DNA of 64,000 nucleotides from Candidatus Woesearchaeota archaeon (GCA_026002815.1 BPGB01000002.1:1-64000), one strand, 5' to 3'. Numbered from the stretch's first letter, positions 982 through 41,457 are shown. The notes: generated by a model not told the origin, from the sequence alone. Program-made: numbers and translations.

Positions 982-1637
982 ATGAAATATAGTAATATTC
1001 CTTTATTTCGCCTTTTAAATCAAAGAATTCGGTTTGGATTAGCAACCCGCCGTACGCAATATTATATTTTTCTGAAAATTCTACATTATTGGAAGACTAT
1101 TCAAAACTTCCTTTTTATACTATTGATGCTCGATATGTGTTGGTTCCTAATATACGTTTTCCACATTTTGTTTTAAATGCAGAATTGAAAAAAGAATATA
1201 AAAAATTAGGATTGATTGCATTTAATCAATTTCAACGCCCCCCCTAAAAATAGAAATATAATTGTAGATTTAACTTTTATGAACAATTAATTGATAAAAG
1301 ATATAAATTTCAACATTACAGGCAACGTGGTGCTTTATTTTTAGATAGAATTATTAATTTTCCTTTGCCAGATAACTATCAAAAAATCTTTATTTATTCT
1401 TTGGATTTATCTAAACCATTTAATAAATTTTTAAATATGAAGGCTTATCATATTCTTTCAAAGATGAAAGATGAAGAATTTAATTTTAATGAAATGTTAA
1501 TGTTTATGATTTCAGGTGAAATGACTTATTATCGAAAACTAATTAAAGAAGGTGAAACAAAATTTCCAAGAGTAGTTCAATTATTTAGATCATTGAAGCC
1601 ACATAAATTACCCGAAGATTTTTTCTATGAAAGATGA
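982..1637 (+). pseudogene. single ORF interrupted by frameshifts (unknown protein); either decayed or affected by homopolymer sequencing errors
   Basis: The frame of the 1365-1637 ORF is open upstream as ...SVWISNPPYAILYFSENSTLLEDYSKLPFYTIDARYVLVPNIRFPHFVLNAELKKEYKKLGLIAFNQFQRPP*. Shifts at TTTCGC (~1008), C7 (~1240) and TTTT (~1283) would restore one continuous protein. Confidence 0.6.
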
Positions 1638-4600: not shown

Positions 4601-5067
4601 CTCCATTTAAAGGGCCAAAATATGACGATATAATAAGAGCTTTAAAAGTTCTTAAATTGGATACTAAATATCACTTATATTTACCAGAATTTAATACTAA
4701 GACGATTAGACCAGTTCCAGTTGGATATATGTATTATTATAAATTAGAACATATTTCAGAATTAAAATTACATGCTAGAAGTACAGGTCCAAAAACGGGA
4801 AAAACAAAACAGCCCACACAAGGAAAACGAAGAGAGGGTGGGCAAAGATTCGGAGAAGGCGATGTTTATACTTTATTATCATATAATGCTAAATATACGT
4901 TGAGTGAATTGATGGGACCATTAAGTGACGATGTGATTACAAAAGAAAAACTTATATCAAATATTATTTTAAATGGGCAGGCCGAATTTGAGCCGCCAAA
5001 AACATCCCCTACAAAAGAATTATTAGAACATTATTTTATATCTCTAATGTTAGAAGGAGAATTTTAG
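1627..5067 (+). CDS. DNA-directed RNA polymerase beta-subunit-like protein (copy 1)
   Basis: RpoB motifs: YYGNIDPLDTPENANVGIIQHL, NFEDGIVIS, GDKLTNRYGGKGVIG, GGQRFGEGDVYTL. Confidence 0.93.
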   Translation: MKDEELANNILSKIHGKIKDSNIEKFKVALMALAKEKPDLFEKIESGELTEEDAMQLASLALLTQNLGSVTQAEQIIQTIPKDKIDRALKLIDNKYADELLVKYPAKVVSTDIFSEISKTDVLVGRSPKHLFEKRKIDFETNLKNDALNAFKVLETKDIPIKIEKLEIEDAPIDFTELRRSEYQTITVQIRTANDKKQTIKIDIPKLQEDGTFIQNGEKKILLNQIIQCPITFPKPYDSKFESSFSAFHIWIKFTSTPYLEIYMGSYKGPLLPLLFYSFGFFKTLKRYNIDAEVLSKRVKINTDKEVIVKVDNNNFIYFKNINTDAKRYLINSLIMTKLEKLKFDSNIDITQKNFWALVLNKFTNKVNTSYMVSNTLENIVDPVAKQILINMKLPFELEDIMEYMTQKVSIGFIIDRNDLKNQRIRNSEVIVHLLQKRILAAYTEYQQQVLAGNKDAKLNIGQKDLLSSILSVEIVQSMEYANPIEEIATLTRVNPIGGKIGGIPDKRAIQEEARNVHPSYYGNIDPLDTPENANVGIIQHLTIDATIGGARGLFQIKKMTDQEGLNILSPSSAMVPFIEKNDGARVIFSNAQARQTVPLRDPEPPLVRSGYESILAGVLSDNFVIRAPDDGIIQKIDKDHIYFISKKKEEKVFSIAPKHLKSGSGRNTLSVFRPTVSEKDVVKKDQIIAEGSCMRDGVISLGRTLLAAFMPYKGFNFEDGIVISSSVAEKRKLTSLHGVEEQFIIDENDRILSIVNIGEYVPKGKPLVVKSIGVLDELLGYSSDEDETIEIMGGDLVKKSPGGRVVDIEVFANTSKFSKLQALIDRTNKKYGRTSHQKFKIDGTPFKGVVIKFYIEQDFDIDVGDKLTNRYGGKGVIGLIEDEKNMPVTPWGEKVEIILNPIGVISRMNMGQIYELYTGLIARMLGRKILQIKKKDEVINLLKSVISPIDKTEKQVYTESIVASLKGMNEERYKFFLESVKKYDGFPITVPPFKGPKYDDIIRALKVLKLDTKYHLYLPEFNTKTIRPVPVGYMYYYKLEHISELKLHARSTGPKTGKTKQPTQGKRREGGQRFGEGDVYTLLSYNAKYTLSELMGPLSDDVITKEKLISNIILNGQAEFEPPKTSPTKELLEHYFISLMLEGEF

Positions 5068-5975: not shown

Positions 5976-6094
5976 TTTTATTTTTTTTAACTAAAAAAGG
6001 AGGTAAGAATGGATACAAGTTGATTTTCTAAAAATAATACAAAAGGTAAAAGGTGAAGGTATTTATTAAGTTTTTTAAGGAGAAAACCAAAACC

Positions 6095-6631
6095 ATGCGA
6101 AACTTTTTTGATGAAAAAATTGAAATGTCGATTACTAAGTATATTATGAATAAGCATATCATACACAAGTTTTTTAAAGAGATCTCGGATATGGAGAATG
6201 TCCAAGATCATCGTTTTTTCATTTCATCAGACCCGGCTGACTGCAAGGAATGTCAGGCTGGACATATTATGTGCAGAACGCACAAGACGTTCAATTTCTT
6301 AAAAAACGTTGAAAAAATCTTTGCCGTGTTTGACACAGCAACGGGTATTTATATTACCCGATATTGCGCATTCGTCCCAGGGGAACCTGGGATCGTATTT
6401 ATCCCCCCAATCCATCCGCTAAAGAAAAACGGGAATATTTTTTCAAAAGTATTCGATTCTCCTCCTGTTGATACTCTAGAAAGGGTATACAAAGTAGGAG
6501 AGATCAACACTGAAAAAATCAACGACTATTACATCGGGAATGCTTTTGTTACCGATGATAATGGTCAATCGTTCCGAGTGTGTTTACTCCGCTTAGGAAC
6601 GAAGTTTTATCCCGCGTTCATTCCAAAGTAG
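6095..6631 (+). CDS. hypothetical protein
   Basis: ORF with Cys/His-rich segment DCKECQAGHIMCRTH; start ambiguous (6053 GTG or 6095 ATG). Confidence 0.55.
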   Translation: MRNFFDEKIEMSITKYIMNKHIIHKFFKEISDMENVQDHRFFISSDPADCKECQAGHIMCRTHKTFNFLKNVEKIFAVFDTATGIYITRYCAFVPGEPGIVFIPPIHPLKKNGNIFSKVFDSPPVDTLERVYKVGEINTEKINDYYIGNAFVTDDNGQSFRVCLLRLGTKFYPAFIPK

Positions 6632-16866: not shown

Positions 16867-18423
16867 ATGCCTAATCCAAACCTTTTTAATACTCGTCATG
16901 ATATTACGAAAAATGAGGCTGGTGGTATTGCTTTTAAAATGTCACCAGAGCATGCGTTAGCCCAATACGCTGTAACAGGGACGTTATATAATACATATTA
17001 TGTTGATGATAAAAACCAACTTGAACATTTACTTGAACTCTTAAAAAAAGTTTCACCAGAATTTGTAGCAAAAACAGCGATTTATGCTCGGCAAGAAGGG
17101 TATATGAAAGATGTACCCGCAGCATTATGTGCCTGGTTAGCAGCTAATGATATTTCTCTTCTAAAGAAAGTGTTTTTCAGGGTTATTGATAACCCCGTTA
17201 TGTTACGAAAATTCGTACAATTTGTACGATCGGGAGTTTTTGGAAGAAAATCTTTTGGTTATGCTCCCAAGAAATTAATCAATCAATATCTTACGAATTC
17301 AAGTTTTGAAGTATTATTTAAAGGAAGTATTGGAAAAAATCCGTCATTAGCTGATGTCATTAAAATGACTCACCCAAAACCAAAAGATAAAACACAAGAA
17401 GTATTTTTTAGATATATTTGTGGATATGATGATATAAATCTTGATGATTTACCGCAAGTAGTTCAAGAATATGAAGTTTTTAAGAAAAATTTACCAACAG
17501 ATATTCCAAAAAATGTTGATTTTAGATTTTTAACAGCATTACCTCTGACGAAAGATCATTGGAAGAAAATTGCATTAACTGCTCCCTGGCATATGACCAG
17601 AATGAATTTAAACACATTTAAGCGATATGGGGTTTTAGATGACCCCGAAATTGTTTCAGTAATTGCCGAAAGACTTCAAAATGAAGAATTAATTAGAAAA
17701 AATAAAGTATTTCCATATCAATTATTTATTACATATATGTCAATTCCTAGAGGTGAGATGCCAAAGGAGATTATTGAAGCGCTAAAGAGAGCCGTGTTAA
17801 TTTCGATGAATAATGTTCCTGATTTTGATCCAGATTTACAAATTGCTATTTGTCCAGATGTTTCTGGGTCAATGAATTCTCCAATCGCAGCTAATAGGCA
17901 AGGAATCGCACGATATATTGATGTTGCTTCAATTTTCACAGCGGCAATTAAAGCAAAAACTAATAATTATATAATTCTTCCATTTAATCATGATTTGATG
18001 GAATTATCTGATATTGAAGAAGATGATGTATTTACATTAGCCTCAAAAATTAGAAAAATGTGTAATGGAGGAACAAATTGTTCCCTTCCTATGGATTTTC
18101 TAGTATCTAAATATTATACTGGAAAACCAGATATTATCATTTATATTTCAGATAATGAATCATGGATTGATACTGATAACATATATAGAGAAAATACTGA
18201 AACTAATAAATTATGGAAACAATATAAACAGAAACGTAATCCAAATGCAAAATTGATTTGTTGGGATATTGCCCCATATAAAACTGTTCAGGTTAAAGAT
18301 GAACCGGATGTTTTAAATATTGGAGGATTTTCAGATCGGATTATGGATATAATTTATTTGTTTATCAATAACAAATTAGAGGGGAAATATTGGAAAGAAG
18401 TTATTGACAGCATTGATCTATAG
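16867..18423 (+). CDS. TROVE-domain Ro60-like RNA-binding protein with vWA domain
   Basis: TROVE-like N-terminus NEAGGIAFKMSPEHALAQYAVTGTLYNTYYVDDKNQLEHLLELLKKVSPEFVAKTAIYARQEGYMKDVPAALCAWLA; C-terminal vWA MIDAS CPDVSGSMNSP. Confidence 0.93.
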   Translation: MPNPNLFNTRHDITKNEAGGIAFKMSPEHALAQYAVTGTLYNTYYVDDKNQLEHLLELLKKVSPEFVAKTAIYARQEGYMKDVPAALCAWLAANDISLLKKVFFRVIDNPVMLRKFVQFVRSGVFGRKSFGYAPKKLINQYLTNSSFEVLFKGSIGKNPSLADVIKMTHPKPKDKTQEVFFRYICGYDDINLDDLPQVVQEYEVFKKNLPTDIPKNVDFRFLTALPLTKDHWKKIALTAPWHMTRMNLNTFKRYGVLDDPEIVSVIAERLQNEELIRKNKVFPYQLFITYMSIPRGEMPKEIIEALKRAVLISMNNVPDFDPDLQIAICPDVSGSMNSPIAANRQGIARYIDVASIFTAAIKAKTNNYIILPFNHDLMELSDIEEDDVFTLASKIRKMCNGGTNCSLPMDFLVSKYYTGKPDIIIYISDNESWIDTDNIYRENTETNKLWKQYKQKRNPNAKLICWDIAPYKTVQVKDEPDVLNIGGFSDRIMDIIYLFINNKLEGKYWKEVIDSIDL

Positions 18424-18670: not shown

Positions 18671-18753
18671 GCGATCATCAGCTAACTCTTTTATAGAAAA
18701 ATATGCTCATGCATGCCACATTATTTAACAACTATACACCACGAGGTGGCCGC

Positions 18754-19335
18754 ATGAAGCTGAGTGAGTGGGCGAAGCAACAAGGGATTTCGTATCGTAC
18801 GGCATGGAATTGGTTTCGCCAGGGGAAACTTCCAGTTAGTGCGATTCAGACACCCTCTGGAACCATCTTGGTGCAAGATTCATCGAAATCCACATCAGGT
18901 AAAGTCGTTGTGTACGCGAGAGTTTCGTCCGCAGATCAGAAAAGCAGTCTAGATCAACAAGTTGCCCGGTGTGTAGCACACGCAACGTCTCTTGGTTTGG
19001 CAGTTGACAAGGTGGTCACAGAAGTGGGATCCGGCGTAAATGGACGCCGGAAGAAACTCATGCGAGTGTTACGCGATCCGAGTGTCACCACCATTGTGGT
19101 GGAGCATCGAGATCGGCTCACTCGATTTGGTTTTGACCTCCTTGAGGCAAGTTTGGCGTCTCGCAAATGTAACCTCATCGTGGTCGATCCAGTAGAATTG
19201 GAAAATGATCTTGTCAGAGACATGATCGATGTGCTAACTTCTTTCTGTGCCAGGTTGTATGGTCAGCGTGCTGCAAAACGCAAAGCCAGGAAGGCTCTAG
19301 AGGTCATGCAATGCGAACATACCACGGACGGTTGA
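18754..19335 (+). CDS. tnpA: IS607-type TnpA serine recombinase
   Basis: HTH MKLSEWAKQQGISYRTAWNWFRQGKLP; VVVYARVSSADQKSSLDQQVARC catalytic region. In-frame ATG 18754. Confidence 0.93.
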   Translation: MKLSEWAKQQGISYRTAWNWFRQGKLPVSAIQTPSGTILVQDSSKSTSGKVVVYARVSSADQKSSLDQQVARCVAHATSLGLAVDKVVTEVGSGVNGRRKKLMRVLRDPSVTTIVVEHRDRLTRFGFDLLEASLASRKCNLIVVDPVELENDLVRDMIDVLTSFCARLYGQRAAKRKARKALEVMQCEHTTDG

Positions 19336-29346: not shown

Positions 29347-29676
29347 ATGGCAGATGAGAATGTTATCGATACTGCAATTGAATTTTTAGATAAAGTATCA
29401 AAAACTAGTGAATTTGTGATTAAATTTATCAAACGTACCACTGGTGATATTCGAATAATGCGAGCTACTCTAGATTTCAGATTAATACCAGATAAAGATA
29501 AACCCAAGAGTGTGGATTTGAAAAAGATACTTACATTTATTAAAAATAATAAAATTCTCCACGTTTATGATTTAGATAAACGTGGATGGCGATCTGTGCC
29601 ATTAGATAGAGTAGAATGGTTAACAGATAATGCCAATGGTGTTACATATAGAGTAAGTATTAAAGGGGTAAAATAA
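29347..29676 (+). CDS. hypothetical protein
   Basis: TTGGAGA SD; starts MADENVIDTAIEFL. Confidence 0.6.
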   Translation: MADENVIDTAIEFLDKVSKTSEFVIKFIKRTTGDIRIMRATLDFRLIPDKDKPKSVDLKKILTFIKNNKILHVYDLDKRGWRSVPLDRVEWLTDNANGVTYRVSIKGVK

Positions 29677-30377
29677 TGAATGTAGAAAATACCGCATACG
29701 AAACAGAGAAATCCACACAAGCTCCATATTCATTTTATTATTATTCAGAATTCGATTTGAGTTCAAGATACCAATTCGAAGAAATTATAACTTTAAAAAA
29801 TCAAAGAACAGCATACGGACAGATTATATATCAAAAATTTTATATTTTAAATCCAGGAATTTATAATTATAAATTTTCATCAGTACTTGCCAATTTAGCT
29901 CATTATGAGTATGTATCTGATGAAATTAAAAGATTTTTATTAGAAACATATAACATTGATTCGACAGTATTTCCTAAAAGAGGGGATTATATTCCACATA
30001 TTTTTAATTTAAAATTAGCAGTACCCTTTCAAATTTTTGTAGAAACAAAAGTAAATTCAGCAGTTAGAAAAATACATTATTTTTGGTCGTTAACTAAAAC
30101 AATTGATTTAGATGCTTTTATCTTGTCGCCTTTCCCTAATATATGGGGATCGGGAGAAATTTGTACTGGAAATATAAATAAAAGGCATATAGTTGACGCC
30201 TTCTTTGAAAATGAATTTAATCGAGATATTACGAATAATTTTGAATTTTATAATTCAAAAAATATCTATCCATTTCGAAACATATTTGAATGGGCCTATG
30301 AAAGTGCTCATGACCCACTGTTTTGGAAAAAAAATAAATATTATAAATCATATATTGAATCTTGTGGAGGTTTATAA
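29676..30377 (+). CDS. hypothetical protein
   Basis: Open frame, ATG overlaps previous stop. Confidence 0.6.
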   Translation: MNVENTAYETEKSTQAPYSFYYYSEFDLSSRYQFEEIITLKNQRTAYGQIIYQKFYILNPGIYNYKFSSVLANLAHYEYVSDEIKRFLLETYNIDSTVFPKRGDYIPHIFNLKLAVPFQIFVETKVNSAVRKIHYFWSLTKTIDLDAFILSPFPNIWGSGEICTGNINKRHIVDAFFENEFNRDITNNFEFYNSKNIYPFRNIFEWAYESAHDPLFWKKNKYYKSYIESCGGL

Positions 30378-32531
30378 ATGAGCTTAACGATGGATCTGAG
30401 CCGACCCATTTTTATTATAAATAATTCTACACGACTGTATTATCAAAAAGATAACTATTTATGTTATCTAAAATTTATAGAGCCGTTTGTCTTTAATGAA
30501 TTATCATTTCCAGGCGCTTATTTAATAATTTATATTCATACAAATACAAATCATGAAGTTATTAATTATGAACTCGAATATAAATGGTCATATGATAATA
30601 TAAAAATATGGGATTCCCCATTAACTTTAAATACAAAAAAAATTAAAGATGATATTAACTTTTTATTTGAAAACAAAGAAAATAATGAACTTTATAAAAC
30701 AATGAATATTGTTCAATTTATAAATATTATATTTAATTTAGATATTTGTAATTATTTAGATTTTGTTGGAAATGATATTTTTCCAACAATTGAAGATTGG
30801 AAAGAATTAAGTCAGAAAAATAAATACTTTTATTTACATTTTACAGAATTAACGAATAGTCAAACAATTGCAGATTATCTATTTCAGAAGGATATTGTTT
30901 TAAATAATTCAGCACCATACGAATATTTAGATTTAGAACGATCTCCAAAGATGATAAATTTAGATACGTATAAAAATATTACAAAGTCTGAAGATATTAT
31001 CTGGTTAAATAACTTTTGGATTCAACCTGGTGATAAAATTTTATATAATAAAGAAATTTACACAGTTAAAAAAATTAAAACTCCATATATTTATTTAGAA
31101 GAAAAGGAACAACCATTACGTATACACGAATGTAAAAATATTGCAGTAATTCCAGAAAAAGATATCGATTTTGTCGAATCACTTCTTCAAGTAAAAGATA
31201 ATAATATTATTGAAGCATTATATAATAATACCTATTATATTTTAATAAAATTAGATGGATTACAACCAATTGTAGATATAAAAAATTTAAAATTAAATGG
31301 ATATTATTTAACACAACAACATCCATATAGTCTTCCTCAGTTAAAAACAATTTATTTTGATAAAAATGATTTAACGGATATTCGACCATTTCAGTTAATT
31401 GATAGTAATGGAAATCTTATAAATTTAGAAACTCCTATTAATGATTATGTTAAAACGGATATTCTCAATAAAGAAATAAAAATTTTAGAATCAATTAAGA
31501 CAATCGATAGTGACCCATCAGATTTTAAATCGATGGGGATTAGAAATTTAATTGAACTTAAAAATTCAACATTGGTTCATATAGATAATTTAATTTTTAA
31601 TGCGGAATATTTGGCTGTTCAAAATGATAATAAATTGGCATGTATTTTTTATACGGAAATTAATAATGAAATTTATTATGCATTTGTACAACATGCATAT
31701 AGAAACATTGAAAGTATTCTAAGGCGTATGGTAAAAAATAAAAATATAAAATTGTTTTATCCTAAAGTACCCAATTTTTATGATTATGATACAATTGAAC
31801 ATAAAAATGATGTTGTAAGAGAATTTACAACAGGTAAATATTATTATTGCACGTTACATAATATATATAATCATGAAGAAAGCCCATTTGGGAAAATTGT
31901 TACCATAGAAAATTTTAATTGGATCGACGAAGGAAGTAATAATATCTTTCTAGAAGTTACATTCAAAGATATTGAAACTAATAAAGAATATACTGACATT
32001 ATCGCGTATAGAAAACGGTATTCGAGTGGATGGACGTTTTGTTATTATTTACATGAAGTAAAAGAAATCTATGAAGATGATATTTATGTAAAAATTATAC
32101 GACCAGATATTTTTGGATTGAAAAGTAATGGAACAGAAATTTTAAAATGTAAAATTGAATGGACTGATGAACATGATTTGTATGTGTTTAAATCAGGAAG
32201 GGTTATTTTTGATATGGATGTAGAAAATGGAATAAAAATATATAATCCTAGAAAAGCGTGGGCAGATAAAAAAGATGTTGATTTAAATACCGCAACATAT
32301 AATTATGATCAACGGTTATATGGTATAGAATCTTTACCTTCCTATACAAGAAATATAAATGCCCGCGCATATTCAATTATTTTTGCTAGTGAAGCACTTA
32401 AAAAGCGGGCAATATCTAGATTTCAAAGAATTCATCCACTGCCGGTTTATCGTACAGACTTTAATAAAGATTACTATATATCTGACAGCCTTAAACATCT
32501 TTTGCCTATCAAAGAAGATAAAGGATATTAG
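30378..32531 (+). CDS. hypothetical large protein (717 aa) upstream of the JAMM/E1/Ubl cassette
   Basis: Long open frame; no family recognised. Confidence 0.65.
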   Translation: MSLTMDLSRPIFIINNSTRLYYQKDNYLCYLKFIEPFVFNELSFPGAYLIIYIHTNTNHEVINYELEYKWSYDNIKIWDSPLTLNTKKIKDDINFLFENKENNELYKTMNIVQFINIIFNLDICNYLDFVGNDIFPTIEDWKELSQKNKYFYLHFTELTNSQTIADYLFQKDIVLNNSAPYEYLDLERSPKMINLDTYKNITKSEDIIWLNNFWIQPGDKILYNKEIYTVKKIKTPYIYLEEKEQPLRIHECKNIAVIPEKDIDFVESLLQVKDNNIIEALYNNTYYILIKLDGLQPIVDIKNLKLNGYYLTQQHPYSLPQLKTIYFDKNDLTDIRPFQLIDSNGNLINLETPINDYVKTDILNKEIKILESIKTIDSDPSDFKSMGIRNLIELKNSTLVHIDNLIFNAEYLAVQNDNKLACIFYTEINNEIYYAFVQHAYRNIESILRRMVKNKNIKLFYPKVPNFYDYDTIEHKNDVVREFTTGKYYYCTLHNIYNHEESPFGKIVTIENFNWIDEGSNNIFLEVTFKDIETNKEYTDIIAYRKRYSSGWTFCYYLHEVKEIYEDDIYVKIIRPDIFGLKSNGTEILKCKIEWTDEHDLYVFKSGRVIFDMDVENGIKIYNPRKAWADKKDVDLNTATYNYDQRLYGIESLPSYTRNINARAYSIIFASEALKKRAISRFQRIHPLPVYRTDFNKDYYISDSLKHLLPIKEDKGY

Positions 32532-32540
32532 GGAGGTAAA

Positions 32541-33251
32541 ATGTTTAAAGTATATCTGTCAAATGAAATTCCTAAAGAATTCAATGAGAAATATGCGTTT
32601 GTAGTTGGAAGTGATGGAGTTTATGTTTATCGAAAAACAAATTTCTACGAATCGTTGACAAAAAGTAAAAAGAATGAAATTCCAATTTTAAATAAACCAG
32701 ATCAATTTATTTATCTACGAAACAATATGAATTTTCCTATGTATCTAATGAATATTACATATTCATTCTTTGCTGATGTATACGAAAAATATAAGTCAGA
32801 AGCAATTGTATTAATTTACATTGATAATGATCAAAAATTTTATATTGCCCCACCACTTCAAAAAGTGAGTGGGGCACATTTAGATTATAAAAATAATATT
32901 CTACATCCAAATAATATGACATTGTTTGGGACAATTCATTCTCACGGAACGATGTCAGCGTTCCATTCAGGCACAGATCATAAAGATGAAGAATTCTTTG
33001 ATGGTTTACATATTACATTAGGGAAAATTACATCAAATCCTCCCGATATTAGTATCAGTCTGGTGATTGACGGATTCAGAGGAATAATAAAGGAACCCGA
33101 AAGAGTTATTGAAAAATACGGTACTTATCAAAAAGTACCATATCCTAAAGAATGGATGGATCAAGTTAAATATAATGCTCCGCGACAAATTTCAACGCCC
33201 ACTCATTACCAAATTCCAAATCATTTTTATGATTCTTGGAGGTGGTGGTAA
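32541..33251 (+). CDS. JAB1/MPN (JAMM) metalloprotease-like protein
   Basis: GTIHSHGTMSAFHSGTDHKDEE, matching H-x-H-x7-S-x2-D exactly. Confidence 0.85.
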   Translation: MFKVYLSNEIPKEFNEKYAFVVGSDGVYVYRKTNFYESLTKSKKNEIPILNKPDQFIYLRNNMNFPMYLMNITYSFFADVYEKYKSEAIVLIYIDNDQKFYIAPPLQKVSGAHLDYKNNILHPNNMTLFGTIHSHGTMSAFHSGTDHKDEEFFDGLHITLGKITSNPPDISISLVIDGFRGIIKEPERVIEKYGTYQKVPYPKEWMDQVKYNAPRQISTPTHYQIPNHFYDSWRWW

Positions 33252-33947
33252 ATGCGAATTGTTATTGTAGGATTAGGCGGAATTGGAACATTTGTCGTAG
33301 ATTATTTGTGTCGTTTTGCAAATTATTCACCCGCCCCTCCAGAATTTTTATTTATTGATGGTGATTCTTATGAAGAAAAAAATAAAAATCGTCAAACGTT
33401 TGAAGAAATTGAAGGACTAAGTAGTAAAGCAGGTGTAAAACGTGTTGAGCTAATGAAAAAATTTCCCAATTTAAAAATTAATGCAATTAATGAATATTTA
33501 ACTCATGAAAATTTTCATAAATATATTCAAAATGAAGATGTTATCTTTATTTGTGTAGATAATCATAAAACGAGATATTTAATTGCTACTGAGGCAGAAT
33601 CATTTGATAATATTGTGATTATTAATGGAGGTAATGAGTTATATGATGGTAATGTACAATTGTATGTACGGAAAGGAGGTGAAAACTTAACTTGTACATT
33701 GTACGATTACCATCCTGAAATTGGGGAACCGCAAGATAAGCACCCTCTTGAATTATCTTGTCAAGAAAGACAATTAAGTTCCCCCCAATTATTATTTACA
33801 AATATGCTTATAGCTAATGTAATGTTAATTGTATTTTATCAATATATTACAAATGATTTTTCAGAATTTAAAAATTATTTTGAATGGTATCTCGATATTA
33901 GAAATCCTTTAATATTAGATGCAAAAATTAGACAAATTAAGTCATAA
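33252..33947 (+). CDS. E1/ThiF-like adenylyltransferase, PRTRC-ThiF-like
   Basis: MRIVIVGLGGIGTFVVDYLCRF nucleotide-binding loop, FIDGDSYEEKNKNRQTF; ELSCQERQLSSPQLLFTNMLIANVML C-terminal helix. Confidence 0.83.
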   Translation: MRIVIVGLGGIGTFVVDYLCRFANYSPAPPEFLFIDGDSYEEKNKNRQTFEEIEGLSSKAGVKRVELMKKFPNLKINAINEYLTHENFHKYIQNEDVIFICVDNHKTRYLIATEAESFDNIVIINGGNELYDGNVQLYVRKGGENLTCTLYDYHPEIGEPQDKHPLELSCQERQLSSPQLLFTNMLIANVMLIVFYQYITNDFSEFKNYFEWYLDIRNPLILDAKIRQIKS

Positions 33948-34007
33948 AAAGTCAATTTAATTAATAGCGGCCCTACCCATCAACTTAATTTATCACCGGA
34001 GACTAAA

Positions 34008-34481
34008 ATGATCACGTACTCTTTTGACGAATTATGGAGCCTTACTGTTCCTGAACTTTATGATCTGTGCAAAAGTTACGGTATTCCGGGAATGCGTAAA
34101 GCTCGGAAATCCACCATGATCAATGCCATTATGAATTATTATGAATCGAATTCTAATGATGCAAGTGACATTAACAACAATCACAATCAATCAGAAGAAG
34201 AGGAGGATTCAATGCTAAATGGAGTGCGTGCAACGGTAAATGCTATTCGCAATGAAGATAACACGGTAAGCGCGATGGTTCGTGTTTCGTGTGGCGCGAA
34301 CCGTGATACATTTCCAGTTGTCGGAAAGACAATTCGGGATGTTATCACGCTTCTCACCCCAATTTTAAACATTCCTGCTGGGGCTGAAGCGTATGTGAAT
34401 GGACAGTCAGAATCCTATTCATACATTCTCAAAGAAGGTGATACTCTCGAATTTATCCGCCCCGCTGGTTCTAAGGGTTAG
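34008..34481 (+). CDS. SAP/Rho-N-like domain + ubiquitin-like beta-grasp domain protein
   Basis: LTVPELYDLCKSYGIPGMRKARKSTMINAIMNYY; C-term ...AGAEAYVNGQSESYSYILKEGDTLEFIRPAGSKG resembles ThiS/Ubl beta-grasp; lies between two E1-like genes. Confidence 0.65.
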   Translation: MITYSFDELWSLTVPELYDLCKSYGIPGMRKARKSTMINAIMNYYESNSNDASDINNNHNQSEEEEDSMLNGVRATVNAIRNEDNTVSAMVRVSCGANRDTFPVVGKTIRDVITLLTPILNIPAGAEAYVNGQSESYSYILKEGDTLEFIRPAGSKG

Positions 34482-34487
34482 TTTATT

Positions 34488-34525
34488 TATAAAGGGGGGG
34501 ATTCTATCCCCCCCTTTATTTTCTT
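34488..34525 (+). terminator. rho-independent terminator
   Basis: AAAGGGGGGG ATTCTAT CCCCCCCTTT ATTTT. Confidence 0.65.
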
Positions 34526-34553
34526 TATTTTCGTTTTTTTAAACGAGGAATAT

Positions 34554-35396
34554 ATGGAAATAAAACGCTTAACCATCTTAGGGGTGGGAAGCATTGGGTC
34601 AAATACAGCTTTAAAATTTATTGAAAAACAACCTATTGAAGAAATACAAATTTTTGATGGAGATTATATTAAAGAGCATAATTTATATAATACTCCATAT
34701 ACTAGAGATGATGTAGGTAAAAATAAAGCATTAACATTAAAAAAATATATATCTAATAACTATCCAAATATTCGAGTGGAGGCTGAACCTATATTTATCA
34801 ATGATAATAAACATCCTATAAAAAATACAGATTTAATAATTGATACGAGAGATGTTTCAGCATTTTATCGAAAATCAAATAAAATCTTTTTAAATGGTAG
34901 TGACTTATATATAGATGCAAGAAAAATTAAATCTAATCTTCCTAAAAAAATTGTTAATGAAACGCACTATTCTGTTCAATATGATAGAAAAAGTTTAAAT
35001 AATTTTCTAGATGTTTATTTAAATAATTTATCTCAAATTCAAGATAATTTTGTCATTATTGATGATACATTTAAAATTAATAAAATTGAATATTCACAAG
35101 CAACTATTGATTTATTAAAAAGTTCAAAATATAAAAATCAATTTTCATATATTGCATCATCATGTGAATTGGATAAATTTTTAAAACAAAAATTAATAAG
35201 GTATTCTATTTATGTTTTCTATAAAGGTACGATTCAGTATCAAGAAAATATAAAATACTCCGATTTGGAAAAAATAATTACAATTTTAGATAATATAATT
35301 CAGAAAAATTATCAATTTTTTAGAGGGCGCTTAATTACTTTGAAATTACTTCCTGGGGGAGATTTAATGCTTTATCCAGAAACATACGCCTGTTAA
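34554..35396 (+). CDS. second E1/ThiF-like Rossmann protein
   Basis: MEIKRLTILGVGSIGSNTALKFIEKQPIEEIQIFDGDYIKEHNLYNTPY. Confidence 0.75.
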   Translation: MEIKRLTILGVGSIGSNTALKFIEKQPIEEIQIFDGDYIKEHNLYNTPYTRDDVGKNKALTLKKYISNNYPNIRVEAEPIFINDNKHPIKNTDLIIDTRDVSAFYRKSNKIFLNGSDLYIDARKIKSNLPKKIVNETHYSVQYDRKSLNNFLDVYLNNLSQIQDNFVIIDDTFKINKIEYSQATIDLLKSSKYKNQFSYIASSCELDKFLKQKLIRYSIYVFYKGTIQYQENIKYSDLEKIITILDNIIQKNYQFFRGRLITLKLLPGGDLMLYPETYAC

Positions 35397-35410: not shown

Positions 35411-35890
35411 ATGTTGGTTCCTATTTTCTCCAAGTTTGAACCAACATTGTTAATCCTTCCAGATTTCTTAGGCTATTCTCATATGTTTCGAGTCAATTCA
35501 AAAATCAAACATAAAAAAGTCGCCATTGTTCATATTAAAGATCATAAGGTAAAACATATCTTTTATTCTGGTCAATATCCTACTAAATTAAATCCAATTG
35601 AAGTATGCCCTTCATATGAAATTAAAGAGGCTATTATTTATAAAAATAATTTTTCAGATATAATTGCTTATATAAAACAAGAATTAAAAATTTGGAATTT
35701 AAATGCAGTTGAGAGTCGTGTAAAAATTAGAAATTTATGTAGCATGCTTGACATTGTTCATAAAATAGATTACCCTGTCACAAGAAAGACTAAAAATTTA
35801 ACAGACGAAGAAAAATTTTACTTTTTGTACAATCCGTTAGGGAATCTAAAGGAGGATCATTCCATTGTTCCCACAACTAATCAATATTGA
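35411..35890 (+). CDS. hypothetical protein
   Basis: AAGGAGG SD; open frame. Confidence 0.6.
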   Translation: MLVPIFSKFEPTLLILPDFLGYSHMFRVNSKIKHKKVAIVHIKDHKVKHIFYSGQYPTKLNPIEVCPSYEIKEAIIYKNNFSDIIAYIKQELKIWNLNAVESRVKIRNLCSMLDIVHKIDYPVTRKTKNLTDEEKFYFLYNPLGNLKEDHSIVPTTNQY

Positions 35891-38498
35891 TGAATACGCA
35901 CAGTCATTACCAGAAATATCTACTCATAAAATTTATTTAAAATCAAACTATCATCCAGAAGGGTTATTCTCAGAACAGATTTTCGGACCAAAAAAAAATT
36001 ATACATGCCAGTGTGGTAAATATTATGGTCCTTCAAAAGAAGGTGAAGTTTGTTCTATTTGCGGAGTGGAAATTTTACATTCAAGTGTACGGAGGGAAAG
36101 GTTTGCGAAAATCTCGCTCCCTTTCCCTATTATAAATCCTATTTTTATAGATCTATTAACAGAATTGAATTTAAGCAAGAAGATTATTGACCAAATTATT
36201 ATTGGTAAACAATCAGTTTATTTAACTAAAAATGAAGTTATTATTAGTGATTCTAAAATTGATAATGCTGCCGAATATACAGGCGTTGATGCAATTAGAT
36301 TATTAATAGAAAATGAAATTTTAAATACGGACTCTTCATTCATAGCAGAACATTTGGACAAACTTTTAATTCATAATGTAATTGTTATTCCTCCTGATCT
36401 CAGACCTATAATGGAAGGAAAGGTAAGTGTATTAGATGAATTCAATAGATATTATACAACTATAATTATGCGTCGTAATAGTATCGTAGCGTCAAATTTG
36501 AACGTTAATAATAATAAAAAATTATTCGATTGGTACTTTAAGCAAATTCAAAAATCGGTTAATGAATTGTATAACCATATACTTCAAAAATTATCAAAAA
36601 AAGAGGGTCTTGTACGACATAATATGCTTGGTCGGAGAATCGATTTCTCTGGTCGGGCTGTTATTGTACCAGACCCAACATTAAAGTTAAATGAATGTAA
36701 AATTTCATATTTAATTTTAATGGAACTTTTTAAAATTCATTTAGCTAAGCATTTAATTTATAAAGGGAAATCAAAATTTATTAATGAAGCTATTCAATAT
36801 ATCAATGATTGTATTGAATATAAACGATCAGATCTTTATAACGATTTATGTGAGATAGTAGTCGATCAATATGCTTTCTTAAATAGACAACCATCATTAC
36901 ATCGGCCAAGTTTATCTATTTTTAAAATTATTCCAACTAAAGATGAAGTTATTAAAATTCATCCTCTTATTTGTCCCCCATATAATGCCGACTTTGATGG
37001 GGACCAAATGGCAATTTATATTTCATTGGAATCTCAAAAAGAATTAAAAAGAAAAGTAATTACCAAAATGCTTTCATCACCAGCGAATGGAAGTTTGATT
37101 ACTACACCTAATCAAGATATTGTGTTAGGAATTTTTAATTTGACTAAAACCGAAAGTGGATTTGAGATTTTTAAAAATCTATTTCCATCGGATTTTGAAA
37201 TAGAATATGATGGACCTATAACTAAAAAGAAATTAATTAAGTTACTAAATGATGTAAAAGAAAAATATGACGAAGAAATTACAAAAGACGTCATCGATAA
37301 TGTTAAAGAATTAGGATTTATTAGTTCCTCTTATGGTAATACTTTATCATTGCATGGATTTTACAACCCCAAGATTAAAGAAATTCAAAATTATATTTTT
37401 AAAGATACTGATTCTGAAGAACAATTAAGACGTATTTCGTCCAATGATATTCTTGAAAAAATCAAAGAAGGGTTTGCGTATAAAGATTTGATTGAATCAG
37501 GTGCGCGTGGAAGTTGGGATCAAGCAAAACAGTTAATTCTTTCACGGGGGTTCGTATCAAATTTCAAAGGTGAGATTTTGAACAAGCCCATCAAACATTC
37601 ATTGTTTGATGGTTTAACTAAAGAAGAATTTTTCTTGTCAACATATGGATCTCGTAAAGGTCTTTTAGATGTAGCATTAAATACTTCAAATTCTGGATAT
37701 TTATCTAGAAAGTTAATATTTTTAATGATTAATCTTGAATTAGATCCAAATATAAAAGATTGCGGAACTCAAGATAAATTAGAAATTTATGTTGAAAATG
37801 AAAAGAAAGCGGAACTTTTGATAGGGAAATGGTATAATTTAGATCGTATTAATAATAATTTATCTTTAATTACAAAAGAAAATTACAAAGATTTAGTAGG
37901 AAAAAATATATTTATTCGTAGTCCGATTTTTTGTAAAAATGAAAAAATCTGTTTGACTTGTTATGGAGAATTTTATAAATACCTTAATTCTAGATTTATT
38001 GGTGTTATTGCAGCCCAATCGTTAGGGGAAGTCAACACTCAACTTGTATTAAGGACGTTCCATACATCTGGAACGGCTGTGATAAGAGATGTTCAATTTA
38101 AACAACAAGATATTGTAAATGACCTATCTTTTACATCATATTTATTACATCATTATAATGATATTGAAGAAAAATGCCCTGAACATTTTGTAAAAACTTT
38201 ATTTGATATTTATAATAATCATAGTTCAATTAATCATGTTCATTTTGAATGTATAGTTTCACAATTAATGTGGCATAAGGGAATGAAATGGAGATTAATT
38301 CCAAATAGAAAAGAATTACCTTATGAATTTGTTTCAATTAAAAGTGTACCATCGTTAGAATCTTGGATACTCGGTTTGGGATTTGAAAATCCCAAGCGCC
38401 ATCTTTTAGATGGAATTCGGTATGGTAAGGCTAGATATAAAGGAATATTTGACAGAATATTAAGAGGAGAGCCATTGGAGGAATCTGTCAGTGAATAA
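35865..38498 (+). CDS. DNA-directed RNA polymerase beta'-subunit-like protein
   Basis: Zinc ribbon CQCGKYYGPSKEGEVCSICG, LGRRIDFSGRAVIVPDP, catalytic NADFDGDQM, GVIAAQSLGEVNTQLVLRTFHTSG; TTG start with AAAGGAGG SD. Confidence 0.94.
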   Translation: MFPQLINIDEYAQSLPEISTHKIYLKSNYHPEGLFSEQIFGPKKNYTCQCGKYYGPSKEGEVCSICGVEILHSSVRRERFAKISLPFPIINPIFIDLLTELNLSKKIIDQIIIGKQSVYLTKNEVIISDSKIDNAAEYTGVDAIRLLIENEILNTDSSFIAEHLDKLLIHNVIVIPPDLRPIMEGKVSVLDEFNRYYTTIIMRRNSIVASNLNVNNNKKLFDWYFKQIQKSVNELYNHILQKLSKKEGLVRHNMLGRRIDFSGRAVIVPDPTLKLNECKISYLILMELFKIHLAKHLIYKGKSKFINEAIQYINDCIEYKRSDLYNDLCEIVVDQYAFLNRQPSLHRPSLSIFKIIPTKDEVIKIHPLICPPYNADFDGDQMAIYISLESQKELKRKVITKMLSSPANGSLITTPNQDIVLGIFNLTKTESGFEIFKNLFPSDFEIEYDGPITKKKLIKLLNDVKEKYDEEITKDVIDNVKELGFISSSYGNTLSLHGFYNPKIKEIQNYIFKDTDSEEQLRRISSNDILEKIKEGFAYKDLIESGARGSWDQAKQLILSRGFVSNFKGEILNKPIKHSLFDGLTKEEFFLSTYGSRKGLLDVALNTSNSGYLSRKLIFLMINLELDPNIKDCGTQDKLEIYVENEKKAELLIGKWYNLDRINNNLSLITKENYKDLVGKNIFIRSPIFCKNEKICLTCYGEFYKYLNSRFIGVIAAQSLGEVNTQLVLRTFHTSGTAVIRDVQFKQQDIVNDLSFTSYLLHHYNDIEEKCPEHFVKTLFDIYNNHSSINHVHFECIVSQLMWHKGMKWRLIPNRKELPYEFVSIKSVPSLESWILGLGFENPKRHLLDGIRYGKARYKGIFDRILRGEPLEESVSE

Positions 38499-41457
38499 CA
38501 TTATTGAATTCAGACAAAAAGAATATCAAGAAATTGAGAATAAAATACGGGAATGTATAAAAGTTATTGAAGAAGAAACAGATTTCGTTTTAGAAAAATT
38601 TAATATACTATTTTCACCAGAAAAAAATTCAATTGACAAAACATTAAAAAATAAAATTACTTTGGTATTTAAAAGTACAAAAAAGAATTCAAAACCAATT
38701 GATTTAAGCATGTACATACCAATATATGATGATGATCAATTTATTATCAACGGATTTGAAAAGATTCCATATTTTCAGATTTTAGATATTCCATTTCGTA
38801 TTACGGAAGAATTTATTACAATTAAATTAAGTATGGCATCTGTCTCTTTTGTACCGCATAAAGAAACAGATGGATTTAAATTTTATATAAATTTTCTAGG
38901 TAAAAAATGTCCAGCATCATTAGTATTCTTTTATTTCCTAAAAGATAAAGTTTTTGAATATCAATCAAATGATAATGGACATCCATTTTATAATGAATTT
39001 ATTGAAGAATTACATACAATTGGAATGGAATCATCAGAAATTGATGATTCTGATTTAATTTATGAAATAGGAAAATATATTTCGGATGTTGATATTTACA
39101 ATAAAGGAGATGATTTTTTATATGCAATAAAAGTTGCACCTAAGATTGATATTTTACATACAAGATTTTTCCATACAGAAAATAAAAATTTAATTGAAGA
39201 ATTTTTATATATTTTACAAAATAATATTTCGTATGATGATTTAGATTTAAGAAATAAATGGATTAGATCAGAATCATTTACAGCTTTGATTATTTCAAAA
39301 TTATTTGAATTTATGATACATAATAGACGACATAAACCAAGGTTTAAAATTAATAAACAATTTTTATTATCTCATTGTAATCAAAATCCAACAATTCAAT
39401 ATGATTTTTCAATAAATCCAATTGATTATTATACTAAACTTTTAAGAACTAGTTTAATTGGACCCAATTCATTTAATAGAGATAATATACCTCCAAAATT
39501 TAGAGATTTACATGAAAGTTTTTATGGAAGAATAGATCCTGTTGATACACCAGACAGAGAAAATTGCGGTGTAATTCAAAGTTTAATACCATCTGTTAAT
39601 GTTGATGAGAATGGAAGATTTACGGATATTATTTCAGATGATATTGTAACAATTCCATTGTTAACACCATTTATTGAGCATGACGATCAAACGCGGTTAC
39701 AAATGGCCGCGTCGCAAATGAGACAGGCAATTCCATTAGAAGAATTTGATATTCCCTATATATGTACTCCTGCAAATAAAGATTTTTTAACAGATTCTAA
39801 AACAGTTATTCGCGCTAAAGATGATGGAGAAGTTATATATAATGATCTAATAAATTACTTATTAGTTGCATATAAGAATGGTGAAATTGATATTATTAGA
39901 ATTGGATTTGTTAATAAACAGAATAATTTAAATATTTATTATCCTAATTATGAAATTTTAGAGACGAAAAAATTCAATAAAGGTGATATATTAGCATATT
40001 CTCATTATTATAATTATGTTTTATCATTTGGAAAAAATTTATTAACAGGAATTACAATTAATGGATATAATTATGAAGATGGAATTGTGATATCTGAGTC
40101 TGCGGCTAAAAAATTAACATCATTACATGTTGAAGAATATGAACTATATGTAAATCCCGATCAAGTATTATTATTACTTGATAACGGAAAACCTTTATAT
40201 GAGGAATTAGAAGTTATCGAGCAAGGGAAAAAATTATTTAAATTAAAAGATATCCCGACAAAGTACTCACAAGATAGCTCGAAAATTTTATACGAAGAAT
40301 TTGAAGATACGGCAACTAAAACTTATTTAGTTTCAAATTTACAAACATTTCCAAATGAATGGAACACTAATATTCGAGGATATAAAGAATTTATCGAGCA
40401 GCGTATTGAAAAAGAAAATAGAAGAAATAAAGAGATACGTTCTTTGCTTGAACAAGCATATGGAAAATCTGAAAAATATAGATATTTATGTGAAAAATAT
40501 AACCTTAATATTTTAGATTTTATAGGCCGTATTAAATATAAAGATGAACGTATAAATGGTGTATTGTTTAAATTTAATTTAATATATAAAGATTATATAA
40601 GTTTAGGAGATAAATTGGCAAATCGTCATGGAGGAAAAGGTGTAATTACTCAGATTCTTCCTGATGAAAAAATGCCTATTACAGATAAAGGTGAACGTAT
40701 TGAAATTTTAATAAATCCATTAGGAATTATTTCTCGAATGAATTTAGGTCAATTATTTGAATTACATCTCGGTTTAGCATTTTATCAATTAAAAGTAAAT
40801 GCTAAGAAAATGCTTGAGGATAATGTCCCATCTTTTAAAATTAAAGAGTATATTTTTAATTTTATCGAATTAATTGATTCGACACATGATAAAAAGATGG
40901 TACATAATTTTAATAAATTGTTAGAACATCGTAATATTGATGAAAACTTTATAAATAATTTATTCATTTTAGTATTTCCATTCGAATCACCTAAATATGA
41001 AAATGTCGCTAAAGCATTGGAATATGTAAATAGAGATTTTGAAGAAAAAATTTATGATCCATTTTTAGATAAACAATATAATATTGCTTTAGGCTATATG
41101 TATATTATGAAGTTAAATCATATTGCAAAAGAAAAGATTGCAGCAAGATCAATAGGGCCATATTCAAAACGAACTCTACAACCGTTAGGCGGCAAACGAA
41201 ACAAAGGAGGACAGCGATTCGGTGAAATGGAAACTGCATGTTTAATCGCGTTAGATATGCCGGAAACATTGCAAGAATTTTTCTTGAGATCAGATTCTTT
41301 AGAATATGTCAAGAACCTAATAAATGAAACTCAAGTAACGACAAAGATTAAAACTAAACCCGAAATTGTTCATTTATTTGATTCATACTTAAAAGTCATT
41401 GGGGTTGAAATTAAAAACCACAAAACTTCAACCAAGGAGTCGAAAGATGAATCTTAA
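38491..41457 (+). CDS. DNA-directed RNA polymerase beta-subunit-like protein (copy 2)
   Basis: FYGRIDPVDTPDRENCGVIQSL, NYEDGIVISESAA, GDKLANRHGGKGVIT, GGKRNKGGQRFGEMETACL; GTG start. Confidence 0.94.
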   Translation: MNNIIEFRQKEYQEIENKIRECIKVIEEETDFVLEKFNILFSPEKNSIDKTLKNKITLVFKSTKKNSKPIDLSMYIPIYDDDQFIINGFEKIPYFQILDIPFRITEEFITIKLSMASVSFVPHKETDGFKFYINFLGKKCPASLVFFYFLKDKVFEYQSNDNGHPFYNEFIEELHTIGMESSEIDDSDLIYEIGKYISDVDIYNKGDDFLYAIKVAPKIDILHTRFFHTENKNLIEEFLYILQNNISYDDLDLRNKWIRSESFTALIISKLFEFMIHNRRHKPRFKINKQFLLSHCNQNPTIQYDFSINPIDYYTKLLRTSLIGPNSFNRDNIPPKFRDLHESFYGRIDPVDTPDRENCGVIQSLIPSVNVDENGRFTDIISDDIVTIPLLTPFIEHDDQTRLQMAASQMRQAIPLEEFDIPYICTPANKDFLTDSKTVIRAKDDGEVIYNDLINYLLVAYKNGEIDIIRIGFVNKQNNLNIYYPNYEILETKKFNKGDILAYSHYYNYVLSFGKNLLTGITINGYNYEDGIVISESAAKKLTSLHVEEYELYVNPDQVLLLLDNGKPLYEELEVIEQGKKLFKLKDIPTKYSQDSSKILYEEFEDTATKTYLVSNLQTFPNEWNTNIRGYKEFIEQRIEKENRRNKEIRSLLEQAYGKSEKYRYLCEKYNLNILDFIGRIKYKDERINGVLFKFNLIYKDYISLGDKLANRHGGKGVITQILPDEKMPITDKGERIEILINPLGIISRMNLGQLFELHLGLAFYQLKVNAKKMLEDNVPSFKIKEYIFNFIELIDSTHDKKMVHNFNKLLEHRNIDENFINNLFILVFPFESPKYENVAKALEYVNRDFEEKIYDPFLDKQYNIALGYMYIMKLNHIAKEKIAARSIGPYSKRTLQPLGGKRNKGGQRFGEMETACLIALDMPETLQEFFLRSDSLEYVKNLINETQVTTKIKTKPEIVHLFDSYLKVIGVEIKNHKTSTKESKDES

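What the first reader, a model, noticed from the sequence alone, without database searches (positions are those of the whole stretch)
32541..35396. Compact phage JAMM - E1 - ubiquitin-like - E1-like cassette
Four consecutive genes: a JAMM protein with an exact H-x-H-x7-S-x2-D (HSHGTMSAFHSGTD), an E1/ThiF-like protein (VGLGGIGTFVV; C-terminal ELSCQERQLSSPQLLFTNMLIANVML, reminiscent of the PRTRC-system ThiF), a SAP-like + beta-grasp Ubl protein, and a second E1-like Rossmann protein (LGVGSIGSNTALKF). Established knowledge: Ubl-E1-JAB associations are known in bacteria and phages (PRTRC cassettes, BilABCD anti-phage operons, and comparative-genomics predictions by Aravind and colleagues). Seen here: no recognisable E2, two E1-like proteins, and location directly upstream of the RNAP beta'/beta genes. 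Inference: a phage protein-modification pathway, possibly acting on RNAP, virion or host proteins.
Basis: partly seen in the sequence, partly recalled or inferred. Interest (0 to 1): 0.85.

Follow-up and report, generated by a model that had tools for sequence, protein, structure and literature searches.

The report
Jumbo-phage ubiquitin-like conjugation cassette
A large uncultivated phage, and dozens of its relatives, carry what looks like a complete ubiquitin-style protein-tagging kit (tag, activating enzyme, conjugating enzyme and tag-removing protease) beside the genes for their own RNA polymerase, which suggests that some viruses of microbes run their own ubiquitin-like system.

Summary
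The set E2-JAMM-E1-Ubl-(second E1-like)-RNAP beta'-beta is in the same order in 53 of 62 related phage loci with enough upstream sequence. Catalytic residues are invariant across diverged proteins. The Ubl models as Rho_N + beta-grasp and ends GxKG; some copies carry short tails, a 67-aa tail or a second tandem Ubl, so the JAMM has a maturation substrate. The Ubl gene is followed by a conserved terminator-like hairpin and has unusually high GC3, suggesting that it is made in excess. The second E1-like protein keeps the ATP-site Lys and Asp but lost the conserved Arg; it lies beyond the terminator, beside the RNAP genes. Closest known systems are type 6d/PRTRC cassettes of plasmids; the phage version fails several of their defining tests. 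Best reading: a working phage Ubl-conjugation pathway (about 0.72). That RNAP is the target is unproven; wider synteny is conserved too. New variant of a known kind.

The parts
29676..30377 (+). E2-like conjugating enzyme (Prok-E2_D type), 233 aa; Cys163 and Asn155 invariant in the family.
   Evidence: Pfam PF14460 19.9 bits; 37 of 43 family members match it, best E 1.4e-7; invariant P60, P117, N155, C163, Y192, W206; AlphaFold pLDDT 77.6, pTM 0.75; best structural match is the E2 Cdc34, Z 5.3, next row 3.4
30378..32531 (+). 717-aa companion, abutting the E2 gene; in relatives the E2 is the N-terminus of a ~800-900-aa protein, so this is probably the split-off C-terminal part
   Evidence: Position and abutting ORFs; fused architecture in relatives. 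Sequence homology to the fused C-terminal part is only suggestive: hhalign P 0.008 against 0.28 for the reversed sequence
32541..33251 (+). JAMM/JAB metalloprotease (PRTRC_A-like), 236 aa
   Evidence: PRTRC_A E 7e-10; H133, H135, S143, D146 100% conserved, E87 93%; HxHx6-8SxxD pattern in 81 of 81
33252..33947 (+). E1/ThiF-like activating enzyme with the complete adenylation site and an invariant cysteine (C170, ELSCQE)
   Evidence: Pfam ThiF 81 bits; D36, R47, Q48, K59, D103, C170 invariant; R, K and D align with MoeB R73, K86, D130
34008..34481 (+). Ubiquitin-like modifier, 157 aa: N-terminal Rho_N domain (about aa 4-50), linker, C-terminal beta-grasp (about aa 74-157) ending ...PAGSKG
   Evidence: Rho_N 28.1 bits; model: Rho N-domain Z 8.6, MoaD/ThiS-family/ubiquitin Z 5-6; K156-G157 invariant in 41 aligned sequences; C-terminal tails
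34489..34519 (+). Strong intrinsic-terminator-like hairpin directly after the Ubl gene
   Evidence: 14-pair stem followed by a T-rich tract; 60 nt after the Ubl stop have z < -3 in 50 of 57 distinct relatives, against 0-4 for the other cassette genes
34554..35396 (+). Second E1-like (ThiF-fold) protein, 280 aa, probably a degenerate E1
   Evidence: Pfam ThiF 45.7 bits; G10, G12, G15, D35, K58, D97 invariant, but the MoeB-R73 position is N, S or K in all checked; own clade in the E1 tree, 100/99
29347..29676 (+). Small SH3-like protein upstream; conserved neighbour, role in the pathway unknown
   Evidence: Present in 55 of 62 related loci; the SH3 label is a guess from sequence, no NCBIfam match
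35411..35890 (+). 159-aa protein between the second E1-like gene and RNAP beta'; conserved neighbour
   Evidence: Present in 56 of 62 related loci
35865..41457 (+). Phage RNA polymerase beta' (35865-38498) and beta (38491-41457), conserved downstream neighbours
   Evidence: Pfam RNA_pol_Rpb1 domains for beta'; beta within 5.5 kb downstream of beta' in 62 of 62 loci

Best explanation
This is a phage-encoded ubiquitin-like conjugation pathway. Proposed cycle: (1) the Ubl is made in excess from its own strongly ended transcript; (2) the JAMM protein trims any residues beyond GxKG and later removes the tag from targets; (3) the E1 (33252-33947) adenylates the Ubl C-terminal glycine and loads it on Cys170; (4) the E2 (29676-30377) takes it on Cys163 and, with its large C-terminal partner (30378-32531) acting as target selector, transfers it to a protein amine. 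Because the tag carries a Rho_N domain, tagging would add a probable nucleic-acid-binding module to the target. The second E1-like protein is a degenerate E1 kept with the RNAP genes, as a partner or regulator. Shown here: genes, order, conservation, predicted folds, C-termini, hairpin. Inferred: the reactions, the direction of flow, the selector role, the nucleic-acid binding, the target.
For: Order E2-JAMM-E1-Ubl-second E1 kept in 53 of 62 loci with at least 7.5 kb upstream, although E2s share only ~14-23% identity with the window's. Invariant catalytic residues in E2, E1 and JAMM. Ubl ends KG (or KG plus a short tail) in all 41 aligned; of 78 distinct hits 48 end exactly there, 20 have one extra residue (18 of them Cys), 5 have 2-5, one has a 67-aa tail, and one is a tandem di-Ubl. 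Folds. Hairpin and GC3. Cultivated phages carry the same E2-JAMM-E1 trio: Bacillus phage KLEB27-3 with a four-fold tandem Ubl whose units end AGVKG, Vibrio phage D69 with a tandem repeat protein whose units end TGTKG, and Salmonella phage Arash. Bacterial MAGs have E2-JAMM-E1-Ubl cassettes without RNAP.
Against: No biochemistry. The E2 fold match is weak (Foldseek gives nothing significant; VIA Z 5.3 over 123 residues at 5.3 A) and the active-site histidine described for type 6d E2s is absent. No E3 and no target identified. The Ubl ends in a single glycine (KG), not GG. Some deep-branching relatives keep E1-like and JAMM genes without a detectable E2 or Ubl.
Confidence: 0.72

Rival explanations
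1. The pathway modifies the phage's own RNA polymerase or its transcription complex; the second E1-like protein is the link.
For: The cassette lies directly upstream of beta' in 53 of 62 loci; all 66 viral loci found by the Ubl also hold beta' and beta; the second E1-like protein stays next to beta' in L034 and L079, where no clear first E1 or E2 was found on the contig; the Ubl carries a Rho_N domain, as transcription terminator Rho does.
Against: Wider gene order is conserved too (Rad50/SMC-like and radical-SAM genes upstream, two genes downstream), so adjacency may be plain synteny. The Ubl scan was seeded with sequences from RNAP loci. Phages KLEB27-3, D69 and Arash and bacterial MAGs have the trio without this arrangement in the regions read. 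A terminator separates the Ubl from the RNAP genes.
Confidence: 0.2
2. It is a sulfur-carrier pathway, like ThiS-ThiF or MoaD-MoeB, ending in a thiocarboxylate, not a protein conjugate.
For: The Ubl resembles ThiS/TGS/MoaD best; ThiF and MoeB are among the closest family models of the E1.
Against: An E2 with an invariant cysteine and a JAMM travel with it; E1 has an invariant extra cysteine; no sulfurtransferase or ThiG-like gene recognised among the neighbours; the C-terminus is KG, not the GG usual for these carriers (own knowledge).
Confidence: 0.08
3. It is a virion-assembly module: the Ubl is a structural or scaffolding protein matured by the JAMM, as proposed for lambda tail proteins I and K, and the E1/E2 genes serve particle modification.
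For: Iyer et al. 2006 (PMC1779556) predict JAMM release of a Ubl in lambdoid tail assembly. In Salmonella phage Arash the E2-like and E1-like genes are annotated as structural proteins (basis of that annotation not known).
Against: Here the cassette lies with replication and transcription genes; the Ubl carries a Rho_N domain; the lambda tail cluster as described has no E1 or E2.
Confidence: 0.12
4. It is counter-defence: the phage tags or untags host proteins to blunt bacterial Ubl-based immunity (Bil, CBASS Cap2/Cap3).
For: Bacterial Ubl conjugation is used against phages (PMC10097602; Hor et al. 2024 as cited in PMC12660748).
Against: A complete pathway is more than an inhibitor needs; conservation across diverse phages suggests a core role; only a 15-bit match to a Bil model in PADLOC.
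Confidence: 0.12

Closest known systems
Type 6d operons / PRTRC cassettes (Iyer et al. 2006, PMC1779556; NCBIfam PRTRC A, B, C, E, F, ThiF, ParB), e.g. plasmid pMOL28
   Same: Ubl + E2 family D + JAB + E1; E2-JAB-E1 (B-A-ThiF) in the same order; E2 motif N...CxG shared
   Different: No ParB match in the bin; scores below every PRTRC cut-off tested; the histidine after the E2 cysteine (seen in pMOL28 and Xanthomonas PRTRC_B as H-NHG) is absent; Ubl has a Rho_N domain and lies after the E1; extra degenerate E1; RNAP neighbourhood; on a phage
Bacterial E2-JAMM-E1-Ubl cassettes in MAGs of Methylomirabilota, Deltaproteobacteria, CPR, Chloroflexota and others (L152-L223 here)
   Same: Closest E1 sequences; in many the same order with a short Ubl
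   Different: Ubl ~70-110 aa in most, too short to hold both domains; no clear second E1; no RNAP beside it
Cassettes of cultivated phages: Bacillus KLEB27-3 gp194-196 + gp199, Vibrio D69 VPHD69_0301-0307, Salmonella Arash gp246c-248c
   Same: E2-JAMM-E1 trio; tandem Ubl units ending GxKG in KLEB27-3 and D69
   Different: No second E1 and no RNAP beside it in the regions read; tandem Ubls; different E1 branch (KLEB27-3, Arash)
Bil (BilABCD) and CBASS Cap2/Cap3 antiphage systems
   Same: E1, E2, JAMM; Ubl in Bil
   Different: Bil E1 is a two-domain protein and its E2 carries a CEHH motif (PMC11354881); here a short single-domain E1 and an E2 without that motif

Membership tests
PRTRC system / type 6d operon | JAB protein over the PRTRC_A cut-off (101.8 bits) | tested here: not met
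   38.8 bits, E 7e-10
PRTRC system / type 6d operon | E1 over the PRTRC_ThiF cut-off (144.75 bits) | tested here: not met
   40.2 bits; all 29 relatives match, best E 1.5e-14
PRTRC system / type 6d operon | E2 over the PRTRC_B cut-off (131 bits) | tested here: not met
   13.8 bits; but 37 of 43 family members match Pfam Prok-E2_D
PRTRC system / type 6d operon | ParB-family protein in the system | tested here: not met
   No PF02195 match anywhere in the bin, including the 211-kb phage contig
PRTRC system / type 6d operon | Conserved His C-terminal to the E2 Cys | tested here: not met
   Phage E2s have FNxD where PRTRC_B of pMOL28 and Xanthomonas have a His-rich motif
PRTRC system / type 6d operon | Gene set Ubl, JAB, E1, E2 together, E2-JAB-E1 in that order | tested here: met
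   Window and 53 of 62 related loci; order compared with L226, L228
E1 / ThiF superfamily (first E1) | GxGGxG, and MoeB R73, K86, D130 equivalents | tested here: met
E1 / ThiF superfamily (second E1-like), as an active E1 | MoeB R73, K86, D130 equivalents | tested here: not met
   K and D kept, Arg replaced by N, S or K in all 12 checked; the ThiF fold itself is supported (45.7 bits)
E2 / UBC superfamily | Invariant active-site cysteine | tested here: met
   C163 in all 43 aligned
E2 / UBC superfamily | UBC fold | tested here: inconclusive
   Top VIA match is Cdc34, Z 5.3, next 3.4; nothing significant in Foldseek
JAMM metalloproteases | E...HxHx7SxxD | tested here: met
   Exact in window; HxH..S..D in 81 of 81, Glu in 93%
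Ubiquitin-like beta-grasp modifiers | Beta-grasp fold and exposed C-terminal glycine | tested here: met
   fold matches have Z 5-6, modest
Bil system | BilB CEHH motif and two-domain BilD E1 | tested here: not met
   E1 is 231 aa with one adenylation domain; no conserved His after Cys163; definitions from PMC11354881
Any of these | Covalent conjugation of the Ubl to targets | not testable with these tools
   Needs biochemistry

The most novel reading that the evidence does not exclude
A whole lineage of jumbo phages runs its own complete ubiquitin-like cycle (E1, E2, modifier, JAMM) as a core function, with a modifier that carries a nucleic-acid-binding domain and is made in excess, used to tether or regulate the phage's own multisubunit RNA polymerase or its transcription compartment.
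Probability: 0.25. Interest if true: 0.92.

Novelty: new variant of a known kind. Interest (0 to 1): 0.76.

Why it matters
Ubl conjugation in bacteria is known mainly as antiviral immunity and from plasmid cassettes of unknown role. A conserved, complete cascade inside phages turns this round: the virus owns the tagging machinery. It gives defined proteins, invariant residues and a predicted cleavage site (GxKG) to test, cultivated phages with related trios in which to test it, and a way to ask what PRTRC-like cassettes do. A modifier fused to a Rho_N domain would be an unusual kind of tag. The 2021 survey of 224 jumbo phages (PMC7824862) has no mention of ThiF, JAB or E1-like proteins in its main text.

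Tried and rejected
'No E2': rejected after PF14460 and family-wide conservation. Relatives by single-protein scan with the E1: none in viral contigs; solved by scanning with RNAP beta'. tblastn of the E2 and of the Ubl domain against cultivated phages: nothing, so relatives there were found through E1 and JAB. Foldseek of the E2 model: no significant match. Homology of the 717-aa protein to the fused E2 C-terminal part: suggestive only. Second E1 as a recent duplicate of the first: not supported by the tree, where each forms its own clade (midpoint root, long branches). RNAP adjacency as proof of function: weakened by the synteny control. ThiF2 alignment scan: alignment not conserved enough. 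Defence-system membership: PADLOC E1-E2 models match only the shared Rossmann domain. Sigma-70 promoters: 49 found, 51 expected by chance. A first regular expression for Ubl ends was too strict and was replaced. Literature: searches in an open-access library without bioRxiv found no description of this cassette; subscription papers could not be checked.

Full report
WHAT IS THERE. Pfam: JAB 24.0 bits, ThiF 81 bits, Rho_N 28.1 bits plus a weak ThiS match, ThiF 45.7 bits. NCBIfam: PRTRC_A E 7e-10 for the JAMM and PRTRC_ThiF E 2e-10 for the first E1, both far below the curated cut-offs. The contig is 211,225 bp long, a jumbo-phage size.

RELATIVES. A scan of IMG/VR with the downstream RNAP beta' gave 80 loci (76% to 38% identity). 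ORF-level profile searches showed the same order upstream of beta' in nearly all: SH3-like, E2, JAMM, E1, Ubl, second E1, small protein, beta', beta. Of 62 loci with at least 7.5 kb upstream, 53 have all five of E2, JAMM, E1, Ubl and second E1, all 53 in this order. In relatives the E2 is the N-terminus of an ~800-900-aa protein; in the window it is split into 233 + 717 aa in abutting ORFs. A second scan with the Ubl gave 66 viral loci, all with beta' and beta (many are the same contigs as before, and the scan was seeded from RNAP loci). A scan of cellular genomes with the E1 gave 73 loci: two look like contigs of this phage group binned with archaea (L151 complete, L155 a short fragment), most others are E2-JAMM-E1-(short Ubl) cassettes of bacteria, without a clear second E1 or RNAP.

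ACTIVE SITES. E2: P60, P117, N155, C163, Y192, W206 invariant in 43 sequences, of which the other 42 share 14-23% identity with the window's. First E1: D36, R47, Q48, K59, D103, C170 invariant; R47, K59 and D103 align with MoeB R73, K86 and D130. JAMM: H133, H135, S143, D146 in all, E87 in 93%. Second E1: glycine loop, D35, K58, D97 invariant, but the MoeB-R73 position is N, S or K in all 12 checked. I read it as a degenerate E1; what it does is inference.

THE UBL. Its C-terminal domain models as beta-grasp, with matches to MoaD, ThiS-family proteins and ubiquitin at Z 5-6, and its N-terminal domain matches Rho's N-terminal domain at Z 8.6. K156-G157 are invariant in 41 sequences. Of 78 distinct hits, 48 end exactly at KG, 20 have one more residue (18 Cys), 5 have 2-5 more, one has 67 more (L010), 4 are Rho_N-only paralogues; one of the 48 (L111) is two full copies in tandem. 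Cultivated phages show the same: KLEB27-3 gp199 has four tandem Ubls with units ending AGVKG, and Vibrio phage D69 VPHD69_0307 has repeat units ending TGTKG. The common cleavage point GxKG next to a JAMM gene is strong circumstantial evidence for maturation.

EXPRESSION. A 14-pair hairpin with a T-rich tail follows the Ubl stop (34489-34519). In relatives the 60 nt after the Ubl stop fold with mean z -5.2, and z < -3 in 50 of 57; after E2, JAMM, E1 and second E1 the numbers are 3, 4, 0 and 4. The z-scores use mononucleotide shuffles. Ubl GC3 is fourth of 58 window genes (0.37, median 0.17; the first two are a transposon insert), and Ubl GC exceeds that of the first E1 in 62 of 62 loci. Inference: the modifier is made in excess, and the terminator separates the conjugation genes from the second-E1/RNAP unit.

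STRUCTURE OF THE E2. The model (pLDDT 77.6, pTM 0.75) has no significant Foldseek match; the best VIA match is the E2 Cdc34 at Z 5.3, next row 3.4. This agrees with the sequence evidence but would not stand alone.

ANCESTRY. In a 53-row E1 tree the phage E1s form one clade (100/92) beside the bacterial cassettes; canonical PRTRC, KLEB27-3 and Arash E1s lie elsewhere; the second E1s form their own clade (100/99). The E2 N...C motif is shared by phages, MAG cassettes and PRTRC_B of pMOL28, but the His-rich motif after the cysteine in the two PRTRC_B proteins compared is not found in the phage E2s. No ParB match exists in the bin. So it works like a type 6d/PRTRC-type Ubl cassette but is not a PRTRC system by the tests run.

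RNAP LINK. The placement is striking, but a control shows that flanking genes are syntenic as well (radical-SAM gene in 51 of 62, SMC-like in 28, two downstream genes in 41 and 45), so it cannot carry much weight. L034 and L079 keep a second E1 by beta' while no clear first E1 or E2 was found on the contig, which hints that the second E1 belongs with RNAP; the contigs may be incomplete.

PRIOR KNOWLEDGE. Type 6d operons are described in PMC1779556; Bil in PMC11354881. A survey of 224 jumbo phages mentions no such cassette in its main text. The library lacks bioRxiv and most subscription papers, so absence there is weak evidence of novelty.

VERDICT. A real, conserved, probably complete phage Ubl-conjugation pathway; new variant of a known kind. 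Confidence in the pathway 0.72, in RNAP as target 0.2.

Noticed in passing
window 1627-5067 and 38491-41457: Two different RNAP beta-like proteins (1146 and 988 aa) in one phage contig, as in phages with two multisubunit polymerases.
   Followed up: partly
window 18703-20828: Resolvase-type transposase gene plus a TnpB-like 505-aa ORF (label by eye, no Pfam match), GC3 0.48-0.61 against a median of 0.17: a recent insert. No second copy in the bin.
   Followed up: partly
window 16867-18423: TROVE/Ro60-like protein (Ro60 vWA 58.6 bits, TROVE 40 bits) in a phage.
   Followed up: no
G000:C7:68189-69611 and window: The bin holding this phage contig looks archaeal (Rpb1 split in two ORFs), while the phage RNAP is of bacterial type; two related contigs (L151, L155) also sit in archaeal MAGs. 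Mis-binning or an unusual host.
   Followed up: partly
L003, L224, L225: Cultivated phages with E2-JAMM-E1 trios annotated mostly as hypothetical or structural: KLEB27-3 gp194-196, Vibrio D69 VPHD69_0301-0304, Salmonella Arash gp246c-248c.
   Followed up: partly
L052 878-5679: Two E2-fusion genes in tandem in one phage.
   Followed up: no
L007 3164-3526, L014 3052-3489, L044 3792-4118, L064 3050-3490: Rho_N-bearing paralogues of the Ubl without the GxKG end, directly upstream of the E2 gene.
   Followed up: no
L070, L076, L078, L082: Deep-branching relatives keep an E1-like gene (NLNRT) next to a JAMM gene (HxHP) several kb upstream of beta', with no detectable E2 or Ubl; three of them also have a short second E1-like gene next to beta'.
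   Followed up: partly
L152-L223: A widespread group of bacterial E2-JAMM-E1-short-Ubl cassettes in uncultivated phyla, separate from canonical PRTRC in the E1 tree.
   Followed up: partly
window 6053-6631: 192-aa protein with higher GC3 (0.42) than any other non-transposon gene in the window; unknown, perhaps highly expressed.
   Followed up: no
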